In this document: positions 53,692 to 60,075 of the stretch, one piece after another | How the letters are laid out: every line of letters begins with the position of its first letter | Numbering within the stretch: position 1 is the stretch's first letter | The notes under the pieces: generated by a model | Databases searched by the model: none | Told to the model about the DNA's origin: nothing | Seen by the model: the letters and a program-made list of their open reading frames with translations, nothing else | From: Leucobacter zeae | GTDB taxonomy: Bacteria; Actinomycetota; Actinomycetes; Actinomycetales; Microbacteriaceae | Direction of reading: 5' to 3' | Length of the DNA: 64,000 nucleotides | NCBI RefSeq assembly: GCF_016758175.1 | Contig: NZ_QYAB01000001.1 | Span: forward strand, 1,777,850 to 1,841,849 | Program-made: the position numbers and the translations under genes

Positions 53692-54834
53692 TTGACCGAG
53701 AGCACTCCCGAGCGCACACCCGCCGCGGCAGCAGCCACCGGCGCGTCCTCCGCAGACTCCGCTGTCACCACGATCGATGTGACGGGCGAGTCGGCCTACT
53801 CCGTCACAGTCGGCAGGGATCTGCTCGGCCGCGTGCCCGAGGCCCTCGGCGATCGCGTCTCGAAGGTGCTCATCGTGCACACCCCGACCGTCGGCAAGAT
53901 CGCCTCCGATCTGCGGGAGTCCCTCCAGGAGCGGTACGCACAGGTGCTGCTGGCCGAGGTCCCGGACGCGGAGTCGGCGAAGCGGGTCGAGGTCGCTGCG
54001 TTCTGCTGGCAGATCATGGGGCAGGCGGACTTCACTCGTACGGACGCCGTCATCGGCCTCGGCGGCGGCGCGCTGACCGACCTCGCCGGGTTCGTCGCCG
54101 CGACCTGGCTCCGCGGCGTGCGCCTCGTCACGATCCCGACGAGCGTGCTCGGCATGGTCGATGCCGCGGTCGGCGGCAAGAACGGGATCAACACGACCGA
54201 GGGCAAGAACCTCGTGGGTACGTTCTACGCCCCCGCCGCCGTGATCTGCGACCTGCGGCTCGCCGAGACGCTGCCGAAGAACGAGGTCCTCGCCGGCTTC
54301 GCCGAGATCGCCAAGTGCGGCTTCATCGCCGAGCCCGAGATCCTCGATCTGCTCGAGGCGGACGTGGACCGGGCGACCGACCCGACGACGCCCGAGTTCC
54401 AGCGGGTCGTCGAGCTCGCGATCGGGGTCAAGGCGCGCGTGGTGTCCGAGGACTTCCGCGAGGGCGGCCTCCGCGAGATCCTGAACTACGGCCACACCCT
54501 CGGCCACGCGATCGAGCACGCCGAGCGGTACCAGTGGCGCCACGGCGTGGCGATCTCGATCGGCATGATGTTCGCGGCCGAGCTCGGCCGCATGGCGGGT
54601 TCGCTCTCGGACGCTGCGGTCGACCGGCACCGCCGGGTCCTCTCCTCACTGACCCTGCCCCTCTCGTACCCCGCCGGACGGTGGCAGGGGCTCCTGGCGG
54701 CGATGCAGCGGGACAAGAAGGCGCGCGCCGGCATGCTTCGGTTCATCGTGCTCGACGACATCGCCAAGCCCCGTGTGCTGGCGGGCGTCGACGAGTCCGT
54801 GCTGCAGTTCGCCTACCAGGAGATCGCGAACTAG
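53692..54834 (+). CDS. aroB: 3-dehydroquinate synthase
   Basis: A 380-residue NAD- and zinc-dependent enzyme of the shikimate pathway: GLGGGALTDLAGFVAATWLR, VTIPTSVLGMVDAAVGGKNG, FAEIAKCGFI and the zinc-binding YGHTLGHAIEHAERYQWRHG. The N-terminus is uncertain. TTG at 53692 with GAAGGGA upstream is chosen; TTG at 53662, overlapping the aroK stop, sits behind a near-copy of the same ribosome site, and GTG at 53677 is also in frame. Its stop overlaps the stop of the convergent gene (CTAG). Confidence 0.93.
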   Translation: MTESTPERTPAAAAATGASSADSAVTTIDVTGESAYSVTVGRDLLGRVPEALGDRVSKVLIVHTPTVGKIASDLRESLQERYAQVLLAEVPDAESAKRVEVAAFCWQIMGQADFTRTDAVIGLGGGALTDLAGFVAATWLRGVRLVTIPTSVLGMVDAAVGGKNGINTTEGKNLVGTFYAPAAVICDLRLAETLPKNEVLAGFAEIAKCGFIAEPEILDLLEADVDRATDPTTPEFQRVVELAIGVKARVVSEDFREGGLREILNYGHTLGHAIEHAERYQWRHGVAISIGMMFAAELGRMAGSLSDAAVDRHRRVLSSLTLPLSYPAGRWQGLLAAMQRDKKARAGMLRFIVLDDIAKPRVLAGVDESVLQFAYQEIAN

Positions 54835-55373
54835 TCCGGGATCGCCACGGCGAGCAGTGCGACGCCCGGAACCGTGACCGAGGCTGCCGCCAGGACGGCG
54901 ACCCCCGGCAGGAACGGCATGCCGCGCAGTCTGACGGGGACGGCCGCGAGGTAGACGGTGATCGGGATCAGGCAGAACAGCACGCCCGAGAATCGGCCCG
55001 TCCAGGTGGCGTGCGACAGTTCGCCCGCTCCGACGACTTCGACCGAACCGATGGCAAGCGATGTCGCGTACGCGGTTCCGCCCGCGATGAGCCCGACCGC
55101 GGCGAGCACGACGCCCGGCACCAACCACTTCCCGCAGCCGAGCGGAGCGCCGGCGGTCAGGACGGACAGCGCCGAGGCTCCGAGGAGCATGAGCATCTGA
55201 CGGACCCCGAACCCGTACTCGGGAGCACTGGCCTCGTGCCCGAATTCGACGAGCAGCCCTCCCATGATCTGCCATGCGGCGAGCGTCGCCGCCGCACCGA
55301 GTACTCTGACGGCGAGAATCGTCACAGAACCGCGTCCCTCGCCGCGTACATCCGGGGTTCTCCGCATCAGCAT
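54831..55373 (-). CDS. Hypothetical four-helix membrane protein
   Basis: A 180-residue protein with four hydrophobic segments (VTILAVRVLGAAATLAAWQI; MLMLLGASALSVLTAG; WLVPGVVLAAVGLIAGG; VLFCLIPITVYLAAVP...VAVLAAASV). No family was recognised. It is 40 nt downstream of the AAA+ gene on the same strand and may be co-transcribed with it. It shares its last four bases with aroB. ATG at 55373, or the one two codons later. Confidence 0.65.
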   Translation of the reverse strand: MLMRRTPDVRGEGRGSVTILAVRVLGAAATLAAWQIMGGLLVEFGHEASAPEYGFGVRQMLMLLGASALSVLTAGAPLGCGKWLVPGVVLAAVGLIAGGTAYATSLAIGSVEVVGAGELSHATWTGRFSGVLFCLIPITVYLAAVPVRLRGMPFLPGVAVLAAASVTVPGVALLAVAIPD

Positions 55374-55413: not shown

Positions 55414-56916
55414 TCAGCCGATCCGGAATCCCTGCCCCTCGAGGATCAGGCCGAGCACCCGGCGATCCTCGCGATGCATCACGCCCTCGACGAATCGGCC
55501 GAGCGCGCGCTCCAGCGTGACCGCGCCGGCGCTCCCCGCAGCCTTCTGCAGGATCGCGACGAGTGTGCGCGGCGCGATCACCGACTCCTCGAGGCCGGGC
55601 CGGCCGTCGATCTCGCGCTCCGTGCTGACGAACTCGGCGAACCCTTCGCCGTGGGAGCCGGCGAATACCTGCTGGCTGATGAACGCCGCACGGACCGCGC
55701 GCATCAGCTCGCCCGGGCCGATCGCGGCGGGCAGGCGGCCGTGCGGGTCGGCGATCGCGGCGACGGCGAGCAACCCGTTCTCGGCGGGGAACTCCTCGTA
55801 CCGCCGGCCGGCGTCGGGGTAGTGCACCCGGTAGCCGTTGGCCCCGAAGCGGTTGATCAGCTCGGCGCTCAGCCGGTCGAGGCCCCGGTAACGGTGCGGA
55901 GTCTGCTCGTTGGCGGTCGCGATGATCGCGAAGCCCTCCGCGATCGTGACCACGCGCCCCGCGTCCTCCTGCACTCCGAGCGTGTCGCCCGGCCGCAGCT
56001 GCAGGATGCGGTTCAGCCGCTTCAGGAACTCGGGGGGCATCGCGTTCACCTCGTCGAGGATCACCGGCCGTCCCTCGGCCATGGCGCGCAGCAGGGGGCC
56101 GGGCACGAACGCGCTCACGGTGGCACCCGCCTCCGCCCGGAGCTCGTGCGACCCGATGAGCTGCGCGCTCGTGATGTCCCCGTAGCCCGAGACGAGCTCC
56201 GGCTCCAGACCGGCGCCGTGTCGGGACAGGTACTCGGCGAGCGCCGTCTTCGCGCCTCCCGTCTCGCCGACGAGCAGCACCGGGTCGCCGCGCAGGATCG
56301 CGGGCAGCGCCTCGGCGATGATCCCGCGCATCTGCGCGGTCAGCAGCAACCCATCGCGCAGCTGACGCCTGGCCTCGCGGATGCGCATGGTTCCCAGTGC
56401 CTCGATGACTCCGTCGCGGACCGTCGCGTCCGTGACGCGCTCGCGCCATGCCGCTTCCGAGCTCATCGTGTCCGTGGCGACGGCGGCGCGGGCGGACCGT
56501 CGCAACCGCGCAGCCGCGGCGGCTTCGCCGCGCGTGAGATCGCGGTCGCCCGCGGCCGCGCGCGCCACGATCGCATCCGCCGCGGCATCTGACGCCTCGG
56601 CGTCCTTGCGCTCGCGCCGCGCCGCGAGCGCAAGGCGCAGCGTGCGCGCCCGGAGCTCGAGCGCACGCCGCACCGCGACGCCGGATTCCGGGTCCGTCGC
56701 GATCTCGTCGAGCCGCGCGTCGAGGTGCGCGAGGTCGGCCGCATGATCGTGTCCGACCGTCCCGGCCTCGGCCGTTCCGTCGGTCTCGGCCGAGCCGAGG
56801 CCGCGAACCCGTTCGGCGATCCGGGCGTCCGCTGCGATGGCTCGGAGCACCCGTCTGCGCTCGCGACCGAGCTGCTCGGCTTCGGAGACCGCGGGCGACG
56901 CATCGAAAGGCAGCAT
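55414..56916 (-). CDS. MoxR/AAA_5-type AAA+ ATPase of an ATPase/VWA module
   Basis: A 500-residue protein. The first ~190 residues are charged, helical and probably coiled-coil. The AAA+ core has Walker A LLVGETGGAKTALAE (about residue 216), Walker B RPVILDEVNAMPPEFLKRLN (about 287), sensor 1 FAIIATANEQTP and arginine finger SAELINRFGANG, the pattern of dynein-related (AAA_5), MoxR-like ATPases. Such ATPases work with VWA-domain partners to insert metals or remodel targets (CobS/CobT, NorQ/NorD, MoxR systems). It diverges from the VWA gene across 58 bp. The function here is unknown. Confidence 0.85.
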   Translation of the reverse strand: MLPFDASPAVSEAEQLGRERRRVLRAIAADARIAERVRGLGSAETDGTAEAGTVGHDHAADLAHLDARLDEIATDPESGVAVRRALELRARTLRLALAARRERKDAEASDAAADAIVARAAAGDRDLTRGEAAAAARLRRSARAAVATDTMSSEAAWRERVTDATVRDGVIEALGTMRIREARRQLRDGLLLTAQMRGIIAEALPAILRGDPVLLVGETGGAKTALAEYLSRHGAGLEPELVSGYGDITSAQLIGSHELRAEAGATVSAFVPGPLLRAMAEGRPVILDEVNAMPPEFLKRLNRILQLRPGDTLGVQEDAGRVVTIAEGFAIIATANEQTPHRYRGLDRLSAELINRFGANGYRVHYPDAGRRYEEFPAENGLLAVAAIADPHGRLPAAIGPGELMRAVRAAFISQQVFAGSHGEGFAEFVSTEREIDGRPGLEESVIAPRTLVAILQKAAGSAGAVTLERALGRFVEGVMHREDRRVLGLILEGQGFRIG

Positions 56917-56974
56917 GCCGTCACGCTATCACCGCTCGTGGGGTCGGCCCGACGCCGACGGATAGTGTGGGGGC
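56917..56974. promoter_or_regulatory. Compact divergent promoter region of the AAA+/VWA module
   Basis: Only 58 bp separate the two start codons. TAGTGT at about 56962-56967 (plus) and TAGCGT at 56923-56928 (minus) are -10-like and would give nearly leaderless messages in both directions. Shared regulation is likely. Confidence 0.45.
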
Positions 56975-58924
56975 ATGTCTGCGTCCGCGTCCTCCGCTGC
57001 ACGGCTCGAGGCCGTCGCGGCCCTCCTCGGGATCCCCATCGAGGTCACCGACGGCGCAGAGTGGGAGGTGACCGACGGACGCCTGCGCGTCGGCCTCGGA
57101 TGGTACGCCGTTCGCGGCCACGGCCCGGCGGAGGCAGAGGCGCTCGCGCTCCTGCAGCTGTGGGAGACCGTGCGCGCGGATCGAGCGGCACCGGATCGTG
57201 AGCGCCGCCGCAGATCGATCGCGACGCTCAGGCCCGAGCTCGACCCGCTGCTCGAGGCCGTCGCGCGCGTGCAGGCCTCGGCGGAGCTGATCGAGGCCAT
57301 GCCCGGGATGCGCACGGCCCTCGTCGCTGCGATCCGGCGCAGCATCCCCGATGATCTGAGCAGCTGGCAGCGCCACCTGCAGTGGGTCGGAGCGCTCATG
57401 CGCGCGGGGATCGCCGCCGCCGCAGGGGCAGGACCGTGGACCGACCCGGGGGTGTCGGCGTCCGAGGCCGCGGTCTTCGGGCTCGATCCCGCGGTGCTCG
57501 ACGAGTGGGCCGGGCTCGGGCGGATGGATGCTCAGCGGATCCCGGATCCGACGCACGAGCCGCTTCGGCGGGTGCTGATCCCGGATCCGTCGCGCACGCC
57601 GCTCCGCAGGTTCGAGCGCGCGCTCGCTCTGCTGCTGCCTCCGTACGAGCGCCTGCTGCGTCTCGACGCCGAGACGCGCGGCTGGTCGGGCGGCGATGGG
57701 GCGCGGGACGGAGTCGACGGGGGCGACGGTGCGTCGGACGGAGGCGAGTTCGGCGAATCGGCTCCGGGCGCGAGCGGCGCCGACCCCGATGCCGGCGACG
57801 CCGAGGGAGCGGGGGAGTCCGCGACGGCCGAGTCCGAGCGGGACGCGGCCCGGAAGGGCGAGGGGCGTCAGACCGCGGAGGGGGCGGACCTGTTCGCGGC
57901 CGAGCAGGCGGGCTTCGTGAGCACGATTCTCGCGACGCCGATGCCGAGCGACGGTGCGGTGTTCGCGGCGCTGCTCGACGCGCTCCCGGATGCACTGGCT
58001 GCGGCGGATCGCGACCGGGACGGCGCGCCGGCGGCGCAGGGGGCGCACGCCGCACCGGGTGACGGCGGAGCGACCGCGATCACCGAGTACCGCGCGCGAG
58101 CCGACGATCTCGCCGACGCGATCGAGCGGATGCGCGACGTGTGGTCCCGCGTCATCGCGGAGCGCGTCGGCACCCGTGCGGCGCTCAGCCGCGACGCCCG
58201 TCCCGAGGGGGAGTCGCTTGCGACGGAGCGGCTCGCGGGCGCGGTCGCCGAAGCGCGTGCGGGGGTGCGACGGCCCGCGGCGTTCCGGGAGCGCGTGCAC
58301 CGTCGCCGGCGGACTCGGAGGGCCGGCAGCACCGACTACGTGCTGCTGGTCGACCGCTCCGCCTCCATGAGCGGCCCGGCGGCAGAGGCAGCCGCAGACG
58401 CGATGCTCATCATGATCGAGGCGCTGGCAGGGGTGGAACGCGACATCCTGCACGCGGAGCGCGCGGGCGGCGTCGATCTCGAGCTCGACATCCGCACCGC
58501 CCTGATCGTCTTCGACGCTGAGGCCCACGTGGTGAAGCCGTTATCGCACGGGCTCGATGACGCCGCGCGACGCGCGGTGCACTCCGCGATCCGCTCGCCG
58601 CGCGGGTCCACCAACGATGCGGCCGCATTGCGGGCCGCGGGAGCACAGCTGGGCGTTGGCGCTTCGGCGTCGGAGGCGCGCACCGCGCCCGACGGGTTGC
58701 AGCGCCGCCGTATCGCGATCCTCGTCGGTGACGGAGGGACGAGCGATCCGCTGGCGGCAGCCGTGGAATTGCGGCGACTGCGCGATGCCGGCGTCGCGGT
58801 CCACGGGATCGGGATCGGCGACGACGACATCGTCGCGCGTTACGCGCCGAGCGGGCGGCGTCTGGACGATCCGCGCGGACTCGCCGAGACATTGCGAGAG
58901 CTCGTCGCCGATGAGCTACCGTGA
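56975..58924 (+). CDS. VWA domain protein of the AAA+/VWA module
   Basis: A 649-residue protein. The N-terminal ~220 residues are helical and CobT-like in appearance (GLGWYAVRGHGPAEAEALAL; RPELDPLLEAVARVQASAEL). An acidic/Gly-rich low-complexity stretch covers about 240-310. A basic linker precedes the C-terminal VWA domain, whose MIDAS reads LLVDRSASMSGPAAEAAADA (DxSxS, about residue 458); GSTNDAAALRAAGA gives the metal-binding Thr, and VGDGGTSDPLAA the Asp. It very likely partners the divergent AAA+ ATPase. Its stop overlaps the next GTG. Confidence 0.85.
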   Translation: MSASASSAARLEAVAALLGIPIEVTDGAEWEVTDGRLRVGLGWYAVRGHGPAEAEALALLQLWETVRADRAAPDRERRRRSIATLRPELDPLLEAVARVQASAELIEAMPGMRTALVAAIRRSIPDDLSSWQRHLQWVGALMRAGIAAAAGAGPWTDPGVSASEAAVFGLDPAVLDEWAGLGRMDAQRIPDPTHEPLRRVLIPDPSRTPLRRFERALALLLPPYERLLRLDAETRGWSGGDGARDGVDGGDGASDGGEFGESAPGASGADPDAGDAEGAGESATAESERDAARKGEGRQTAEGADLFAAEQAGFVSTILATPMPSDGAVFAALLDALPDALAAADRDRDGAPAAQGAHAAPGDGGATAITEYRARADDLADAIERMRDVWSRVIAERVGTRAALSRDARPEGESLATERLAGAVAEARAGVRRPAAFRERVHRRRRTRRAGSTDYVLLVDRSASMSGPAAEAAADAMLIMIEALAGVERDILHAERAGGVDLELDIRTALIVFDAEAHVVKPLSHGLDDAARRAVHSAIRSPRGSTNDAAALRAAGAQLGVGASASEARTAPDGLQRRRIAILVGDGGTSDPLAAAVELRRLRDAGVAVHGIGIGDDDIVARYAPSGRRLDDPRGLAETLRELVADELP

Positions 58925-60075
58925 GTGGCGTGGGGCGACCGACGGCGGACGAGCCGGGCAGTGGAGCGAGAAAGGGCGGGGCAGTGGAGCTAGGAGCGGG
59001 CGGACGAGCCGAAGAGCGGGAGCGGCTGGGGTTGATGCGCGCGCTGTTCCCGGACATCGCGCTGGATCTCGACCGCGCGCTCGACGCGCACGGTCACGCT
59101 GACGCGTCCGCCGCATTCGACGCCTGGATCGACGCCCGCGCAGACGCCGTGATCCCCGGCGCCGGCTTCGCGCAGGTGGAGGACGTCGAGAGCGCGGAGC
59201 GGTTCCAGCAGGCGTTCGCCGCCGCGCGGCGCGCGGCGGCCTGGTTCGGCGGCGCGGCGGAGTCCGGTACCGGCGCGCCGGGGTCGGACCCGGTCGGCGC
59301 GCGCTCCGCCGCCTCCGCCCCTCGCGGGCTCGCCGTGCCCGAGCCCGAGGCCTTCTCCGAGGCCGGAGTCGACTTCGCCAGGCTCGCCCGTGCAATGGCC
59401 GCGGACCCGTCGCTGGTACCGGTGCCAGCGCCCCACGGATTGGGAGCGGATGCCTGGCGAGCGGCGTACCGTGCCGCCGCGTCGGCGTACGTTCGAGGGG
59501 CGGCTTCGGAGACGGGTGCCGCCGAGGTCGGGCCGGCGGTCGGGGAGCCCGGTATCGCGGCCGGGCCGCTCGCGCTCCCCGAGGGCCCGGGGGGCTCGCC
59601 GCTCGTGCTCGCCTCCGAAGCCGAGCGCGGGTTCGCGCAGCTCGACGCGGTCCCCGTGTCCGGTGGACGCGCGGCCGCGGTCGTCTCGATGGGGTGGGAG
59701 GCGAGCGCGGGCTCGGGCGCGGCTCCGCGCACGATCCCCGGAATCGATGCGGGCTCCGGATCGGCCGAGCGACGACGGCCCCGCTGGACGCTGCGGCTCG
59801 TGCCTGCTGGGCAGCGACCGCAGACGCTCGGTCTCGGATTCGCGCACGGAGAGCATGTGTCTCTGCCCGAGATGCTCATGCTGCAGCTGATGAACCTCGC
59901 CTCGGGGGAGGAGCTCGTCGACTCGGAGAGCTTCACCTGGCTGGCGGGTCCGGTCGCCGACGGGCGCATGGCGGCGCGCCACGTCTACGATGCGGGGGAG
60001 CGCGTCATCCGCATCACCTGTCGCGAGGTCGGCAGCCAGGGCCCGCACATGGGGACTCGACCGCCCGTCGGGTAG
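58921..60075 (+). CDS. Third protein of the AAA+/VWA module, unknown
   Basis: A 384-residue protein with no recognised family. Start GTG overlaps the VWA stop (GTGA); GTG at 58984 with AAAGGG upstream is an alternative. An acidic helical part (LMRALFPDIALDLDRALDAH) is followed by a long Ala/Gly/Pro-rich stretch, and a compact C-terminus (WTLRLVPAGQRPQTLGLGFA; VSLPEMLMLQLMNLASGEEL; FTWLAGPVADGRMAARHVYD) that looks like a small conserved beta-rich domain. No signal peptide or membrane helix. Coupled translation suggests it is a client, adaptor or effector of the module. Confidence 0.75.
   Translation: MSGVGRPTADEPGSGARKGGAVELGAGGRAEERERLGLMRALFPDIALDLDRALDAHGHADASAAFDAWIDARADAVIPGAGFAQVEDVESAERFQQAFAAARRAAAWFGGAAESGTGAPGSDPVGARSAASAPRGLAVPEPEAFSEAGVDFARLARAMAADPSLVPVPAPHGLGADAWRAAYRAAASAYVRGAASETGAAEVGPAVGEPGIAAGPLALPEGPGGSPLVLASEAERGFAQLDAVPVSGGRAAAVVSMGWEASAGSGAAPRTIPGIDAGSGSAERRRPRWTLRLVPAGQRPQTLGLGFAHGEHVSLPEMLMLQLMNLASGEELVDSESFTWLAGPVADGRMAARHVYDAGERVIRITCREVGSQGPHMGTRPPVG

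What the first reader, a model, noticed from the sequence alone, without database searches (positions are those of the whole stretch)
55414..60075. Divergent AAA+ ATPase / VWA / unknown-protein module
A MoxR/AAA_5 ATPase with a long helical N-terminus faces a 649-aa VWA protein with an intact MIDAS across a 58-bp shared promoter; a third, unrecognised 384-aa gene is translationally coupled to the VWA gene. AAA+/VWA pairs are known as metal chelatases (CobS/CobT, BchI/BchD), NorQ/NorD activators, and as parts of vWA-MoxR-associated (VMAP) conflict systems. No cobalamin, denitrification or chlorophyll gene is nearby, and the third protein fits none of these. This makes it the window's best candidate for an undescribed system. 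A four-helix membrane protein (54831-55373) follows the ATPase gene and may belong.
Basis: partly seen in the sequence, partly recalled or inferred. Interest (0 to 1): 0.75.

Follow-up and report, generated by a model that had tools for sequence, protein, structure and literature searches.

The report
Leucobacter three-part AAA+/VWA protein machine
Next to its aromatic amino-acid genes, this Leucobacter-like chromosome carries a three-gene unit (a ring-type ATPase, its metal-site partner and a third protein of unknown kind) that stays together in related species and exists as two old paralogous sets, so it is probably an undescribed protein-remodelling machine with an unknown target.

Summary
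Window 55414-60075 encodes an AAA_5 (MoxR-like) ATPase, a divergent VWA protein with intact MIDAS, and an unrecognised third protein. In 54 genomes of the genus (Leucobacter, inferred), all 52 third-gene places scored lie beside a VWA gene. Of 45 good genomes 44 have each gene; the exception lacks all three. In 378 family genomes, ATPase and third protein occur in the same 12, from two genera. A second, anciently diverged set sits elsewhere, its third gene inverted but adjacent; second copies form one clade in all three trees. So the third protein is very likely integral. It has no Pfam or PDB-sequence relative, and its alpha+beta domain model gave no significant Foldseek match. The pair is distantly related to an AAA/VWA pair of another actinobacterial family that lacks the third gene. 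Tested features of VMAP, Yeh-type and CobS/CobT systems are not met. The four-helix membrane gene does not appear to belong. Best reading: an AAA+/VWA remodelling machine with its own third subunit as client adaptor (0.5); client unknown.

The parts
55414..56916 (-). MoxR/midasin-like AAA_5 ATPase, 500 aa; poorly conserved N-terminal part (about 1-160), AAA core about 195-370
   Evidence: Pfam AAA_5 6e-21 at 212-357; Walker A GETGGAKT (A to G in 1 of 37), Walker B ILDE, ATAN, R356, R450 otherwise invariant in 37 loci
56975..58924 (+). VWA protein, 649 aa: long N-terminal region, D/E- and G-rich stretch about 250-300, C-terminal VWA with MIDAS D460-x-S462-x-S464, T546, D586
   Evidence: Pfam VWA 3e-9 at 456-618; MIDAS residues invariant in 37 of 37 loci
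58921..60075 (+). Third component (P384; possibly starts at GTG 58984 = 363 aa): helical N-terminal part plus alpha+beta domain about 140-370
   Evidence: beside VWA in 52 of 52 scored places; AlphaFold2 mean pLDDT 76, 152 residues >= 90; no Pfam/PDB match
56917..56974 (.). 58-bp divergent intergenic region
56963..56968 (+). -10-like TAGTGT, 6 nt before the VWA ATG (leaderless-type start)
   Evidence: such an element 5-8 nt before the start in 21 of 36 relatives; 1.7% of all ATGs in the loci
56923..56928 (-). -10-like TAGCGT, 6 nt before the AAA ATG (leaderless-type start)
   Evidence: such an element in 25 of 36 relatives

Best explanation
A ternary AAA+/VWA remodelling machine. The ATPase forms a MoxR-type ring. 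The VWA protein docks on it, presumably with a loop in the pore as shown for NorQD, and uses its MIDAS metal to hold an acidic residue of a target. The third protein is a dedicated, fast-evolving subunit that binds the VWA protein and gives client specificity or gating. ATP hydrolysis moves the VWA protein and so remodels the client. Shown here: three intact, selected, tightly linked genes and whole-module paralogy. Inferred: ring assembly, pore docking, the adaptor role. The client is unknown; near-universal presence in the genus, mostly at one chromosomal site, argues for a housekeeping target.
For: Linkage: 52 of 52 scored third-gene places beside VWA; 51 of 53 scored VWA places have an AAA on the contig. 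Co-occurrence of AAA and third protein in the same 12 of 378 family genomes. Absence of all three at the syntenic site in G195. Two ancient paralogous modules: second copies form one clade in all three trees (support 0.996-1.0); path-length correlations 0.94 (ATPase/VWA), 0.87 (ATPase/third), 0.89 (VWA/third) over 37 loci; partial correlations given aroB 0.76, 0.55, 0.62 over 22 loci. Catalytic and MIDAS residues invariant. Nearest solved relatives of the ATPase: midasin 1.8e-34 and NorQ 4e-8, both AAA+/VWA machines. NorQD mechanism: PMC13036017, sections 7 and 11 read.
Against: No binding evidence and no complex model; the VWA structure job was never accepted. Nothing here separates adaptor from client directly. 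In second-copy loci the third gene is inverted, so it need not be co-transcribed there. In the third-protein tree the type A sequences of the second genus (L045, L047) fall inside the Leucobacter ones, unlike in the other two trees. Distances correlate only moderately with aroB (0.56-0.60 over 22 loci), so descent within the genus need not be strictly vertical. The polar invariant residues of the third protein would also suit an enzyme.
Confidence: 0.5

Rival explanations
1. The third protein is the client: an unknown enzyme or metal protein that the ATPase/VWA pair matures, as NorQD matures NO reductase and CbbQO activates rubisco.
For: Known pairs often sit beside their client genes (nor operon; otherwise recalled); the third protein has invariant polar residues in its best conserved part (E317, D334, R353, D357, R368, H376, R380) that could be catalytic or metal ligands (inference).
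Against: It was not found without the pair in 378 family genomes (one chance-level hit, G842 at 3.4e-4) or, convincingly, in 396 phylum genomes. Known clients are usually wider spread than their activators (recalled). It is the fastest-evolving of the three (mean tree distance 1.44 vs 1.33 and 0.85).
Confidence: 0.25
2. A conflict or defence system of the MoxR-vWA ternary type, with the third protein as the sensor.
For: Three linked genes, congruent trees and several complete sets per genome are traits reported for VMAP ternary systems (PMC7159879, passages read).
Against: No domain follows the VWA domain; PADLOC matches of the ATPase are weak RtcR/PspF-type AAA ones only (7.6e-5 and 0.0018) and the other proteins have none. 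Presence in 44 of 45 good genus genomes, with efp in the fetched stretch in 33 of 39 type A loci of the genus, is unlike patchy spread. No relative in viral contigs and no third protein in plasmids.
Confidence: 0.1
3. A metal chelatase of the CobS/CobT or BchI/BchD kind.
For: D/E-rich stretch before a C-terminal VWA; 4 of 25 VWA members match Pfam CobT_C weakly, best 0.0014.
Against: No CobS or Mg-chelatase model among the Pfam families listed for 25 ATPase members or the NCBIfam matches of the window proteins; no corrin or porphyrin gene recognised by eye among recurrent neighbours (several clusters not identified).
Confidence: 0.05

Closest known systems
   Same: adjacent pair; profile match of ATPases E 2e-25 over 265 columns and of VWA proteins E 1.5e-12 over 472 columns including the N-terminal part
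   Different: no third protein in these stretches by profile search, E up to 1, with L041 and L045 found as controls; both genes on one strand; strong in 3 of 60 genomes of that family, G561 included
NorQ/NorD (and CbbQ/CbbO)
   Same: AAA+ ring plus C-terminal VWA with MIDAS; NorQ matches the ATPase profile at 4e-8
   Different: NorQ is a single AAA+ module; here about 190 residues precede the AAA core; unrelated third gene
Midasin (Rea1/Mdn1)
   Same: closest solved ATPase by sequence, 1.8e-34; VWA domain acting on an AAA ring
   Different: separate proteins, not one giant chain; no ribosome-assembly partner identified
VMAP and other MoxR-vWA ternary systems (PMC7159879)
   Same: three linked genes, several complete sets per genome, congruent trees
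   Different: gene order, third protein, N-terminal motifs and effectors differ
DUF5691/SWIM/AAA/DUF5682/VWA_CoxE cluster of actinobacteria (the name Yeh-type is recalled)
   Same: AAA_5 plus VWA (L135); ATPase profile match 9e-16 over 176 columns
   Different: third protein unrelated to DUF5682 or the SWIM protein (E 0.35 and 0.55)

Membership tests
MoxR-type AAA+/VWA pair | AAA_5 ATPase with intact Walker A/B, sensor 1, arginine finger | tested here: met
   (finger position assigned from recall)
MoxR-type AAA+/VWA pair | adjacent VWA partner with intact MIDAS | tested here: met
MoxR-type AAA+/VWA pair | hexamer ring with VWA loop in the pore | not testable with these tools
VMAP ternary system | strict order VMAP-MoxR-vWA | tested here: not met
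   47 pairs divergent, 4 same-strand with inverted third gene
VMAP ternary system | motifs WxhapG and PsWRxa N-terminal to the MoxR AAA domain | tested here: not met
   no tryptophan among invariant or 90%-conserved positions of the ATPase
VMAP ternary system | variable effector domains C-terminal to the vWA domain | tested here: not met
   VWA match ends at 618 of 649, no further domain
VMAP ternary system | third protein with VMAP domain | tested here: not met
   no VMAP family among Pfam matches of 24 members scanned; that Pfam holds VMAP models is recalled, a bpMoxR model was seen
DUF5682/SWIM (Yeh-type) cluster | DUF5682 and SWIM partners | tested here: not met
   third protein unrelated to either
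CobS/CobT chelatase | CobT/CobS family models | tested here: not met
   weak CobT_C hits in 4 of 25 VWA members, best 0.0014, none for the window protein; no CobS model
CobS/CobT or BchI/BchD chelatase | corrin or porphyrin genes alongside | tested here: inconclusive
   none recognised by eye; several neighbour clusters not identified
NorQ/NorD | NorQ/NorD family model | tested here: not met
   none among NCBIfam matches up to E 1
RavA/ViaA | LARA domain after the AAA module (recalled) | not tested
   no RavA or ViaA model appeared, but the domain was not compared

The most novel reading that the evidence does not exclude
A new class of ternary AAA+/VWA machine whose third subunit has a fold not seen before, kept as a core machine of Leucobacter and, in some species, in two paralogous forms with separate clients.
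Probability: 0.3. Interest if true: 0.75.

Novelty: new variant of a known kind. Interest (0 to 1): 0.5.

Why it matters
AAA+/VWA machines insert metals, activate enzymes and help assemble ribosomes, but how they choose clients is poorly understood. A compact three-part version with a third subunit found nowhere else in the sets searched, and duplicated as a whole, would make client choice testable: some species hold two such machines, each with its own third subunit, in one cell.

Tried and rejected
Membrane protein 54831-55373 as a component: no match in the 49 fetched loci. DegT aminotransferase as client of the second copy (it precedes the ATPase gene in L041, L042, L046, L048): homologues at E <= 1e-80 in 43 of 54 genus genomes, only four of which have the second copy, so it is not tied to it. 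Third protein related to DUF5682 or SWIM partners: no. Mobile homologues: no relative of ATPase or third protein in viral contigs; third protein none in plasmids; the ATPase meets only AAA cores under 60% identity in 75 plasmid and 6 phage records; the third protein was not searched in phages, nor the VWA protein in any of these. Fold matches of the third-protein model: best E 1.9 in the PDB and 1.7 among viral models, so none. A missing match is no proof of a new fold, and only 24 sequences fed the model. The RelE/HigB-type entries high in the PDB list align over about 30-40 columns (75 in one) at chance level and are not read as relatedness. Literature: no held paper has Leucobacter with MoxR and von Willebrand or with AAA and 'VWA domain-containing'. 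Five hold MoxR, vWA and 'ternary system'; of these I saw passages of PMC7159879 only. A search for YehL/DUF5682/SWIM gave nothing useful.

Full report
What is there. The 500-aa ATPase has one AAA_5 domain (6e-21); the 649-aa protein ends in a VWA domain (3e-9); the third protein has no match up to E 1 in Pfam, NCBIfam or PADLOC and none of weight among solved chains by sequence (best 0.24 and, with the profile, 0.15). Scanning 24 third-protein members one by one against Pfam gave four scattered families, best 0.024. Across 37 aligned loci the ATP-site residues and all five MIDAS residues are invariant, but for one A to G in Walker A. dN/dS is 0.05-0.25 for the three genes in 9 close pairs.

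Where it comes from. Of 29 loci found with the ATPase in named genomes, 27 are Leucobacter by title, one is an Actinomycetota bin (L065) and one an unrelated AAA hit (L089). The window's own genome is therefore taken to be Leucobacter (inference). In 54 genomes of its genus the ATPase is found in 50, the VWA protein in 49 and the third protein in 48; of 45 good genomes 44 have each. The good one without them, G195, has aroB, the thioesterase gene, efp and nusB in the usual order, but none of the three genes in the stretch (the profile search was for the third protein); one other ORF fills the gap. In 378 genomes from 85 genera of the family, the ATPase (E <= 1e-15) and the third protein occur in the same 12 genomes, from two genera (the VWA protein was not searched there). 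The second genus includes L. chinensis: L084 and G051:C18 share contig length and place. A 3.4e-4 third-protein hit in G842 over 61 positions is taken as chance. In 396 phylum genomes the third protein has, beyond the window, only four hits of E 0.0016-0.0096.

Linkage. All 52 scored third-gene places lie 24-416 bp from a VWA gene, measured between profile ends. 51 of 53 scored VWA places have an ATPase gene on the contig. The two exceptions (G157, G191) and three lone ATPase places (G157, G180, G191) are at contig ends or on broken contigs. 47 pairs are divergent as in the window (type A); four have ATPase and VWA on one strand with the third gene convergent (type B). In G188 about 2.7 kb lies between ATPase and VWA. 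In type A loci of the genus, efp lies within the fetched stretch in 33 of 39 (duplicates included). Gene names aro, efp, nusB and the like are by eye.

Two paralogous modules. G153, G166, G177 and G192, and both searched genomes of the second genus (G051, G121), carry types A and B. Type B lies beside a serC-like gene in L041-L044, L046 and L048; in L041, L042, L046 and L048 a DegT aminotransferase gene directly precedes the ATPase gene, with MocR-like and GabT-like genes beyond (DegT and Aminotran_5 by Pfam for L041, the rest by similarity or by eye). In trees of 37 loci type B is one clade for each protein (support 0.996, 0.999, 1.0). Path-length correlations are 0.94 (ATPase/VWA), 0.87 (ATPase/third) and 0.89 (VWA/third). 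In 22 type A loci they are 0.84, 0.70 and 0.76, and 0.76, 0.55 and 0.62 after taking out aroB, with which each protein correlates at 0.56-0.60. The placing of the second genus's type A third protein inside the Leucobacter set is a disagreement between trees. Keeping the third gene in both copies, even inverted, is the strongest sign that it is part of the machine.

Promoters. A -10-like TANNNT ends 5-8 nt before 25 of 36 ATPase and 21 of 36 VWA starts, against 3 of 36 for the third gene and 114 of 6,781 ATGs (1.7%) in the loci. All positive ATPase and VWA cases are among the 28 type A loci of the main genus; some misses are starts that my script placed wrongly. The window has TAGCGT and TAGTGT, each 6 nt from its ATG. 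This suggests two back-to-back leaderless promoters, with the third gene read through from the VWA gene (inference).

Third protein. AlphaFold2 from 24 sequences gave mean pLDDT 76, pTM 0.71, 152 residues at 90 or more. The order is four N-terminal helices, two short helices, strand 165-172, helix 176-197, a stretch with low-confidence parts and short elements, strand 288-295, helix 315-327 and strands 339-345, 350-357, 362-369. The last hundred residues are best conserved (mean share of the commonest residue 0.63-0.70 per block), with F338-T339-W340, A352-R353, D357, R368, G374, H376 and R380 invariant. Foldseek found nothing at E <= 0.001 in the PDB (46 matches up to E 10, best 1.9) or among viral models (95, best 1.7).

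Relatives of the pair. Outside the two genera the nearest ATPase in 396 phylum genomes is in G561 (2.8e-31), then other AAA types from 2.3e-17 down; 34 genomes pass 1e-8, the window's included. G561, G627 and G638, of one unnamed family, have an ATPase/VWA pair without the third protein in the stretches fetched. Profile comparison links the ATPases (2e-25) and the VWA proteins over 472 columns (1.5e-12). The DUF5691/SWIM/AAA/DUF5682/VWA_CoxE cluster is more distant (9e-16; partners named for L135). Among solved structures midasin (1.8e-34) and NorQ (4e-8) are nearest.

Mechanism. NorQD works by a VWA finger in the ring's pore, a proposed MIDAS or linker contact to the target, and ATP-driven twisting (PMC13036017: abstract, sections 7 and 11; PMC9976466: passages). 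I transfer this to the present pair as inference. The third protein most likely supplies client choice. Presence in nearly all genus genomes, mostly at one site, and the lack of effector domains speak against defence.

Novelty. Engine known, third part new in the sets searched; hence 'new variant of a known kind'. I found no paper on it in the searches named.

Noticed in passing
L041, L042, L043, L044, L046, L048 (second-copy loci): The second copy lies beside a serC-like gene and near several other apparent PLP-enzyme genes (DegT, GabT-like, MocR-like, alanine racemase-like or LysA-like, mostly by eye; not the same set in each). Whether this means anything is unknown.
   Followed up: partly
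L045:12500-13366, L047:12462-13328, and L060, L069, L071, L075, L077, L081, L082 (L076 duplicates L060): A DUF1684 gene lies on the ATPase side of type A loci in both genera (37-40% identity between them), in different orientations.
   Followed up: partly
window:60871-62136 (-): Protein with a DUF2510 match and one hydrophobic segment; its C-terminal part holds HEIAH, a zinc-peptidase-like motif (by eye).
   Followed up: no
L049 and L085 (L. coleopterorum): ATPase, VWA and third gene matches are split into pieces, but so are those of efp and aroC (L049), which points to assembly errors, not gene loss.
   Followed up: partly
L130:10920-12374 and L141:4758-6200: A trigger-factor-like gene (by eye) is divergent from the ATPase gene in two genomes of the distant family.
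   Followed up: no
L146:8208-10101 (G195), L148:203-1687 (G193): Where the module is missing in G195 another ORF fills the gap; the ORF beside the thioesterase gene in G193 looks like a MocR-type regulator (by eye).
   Followed up: no
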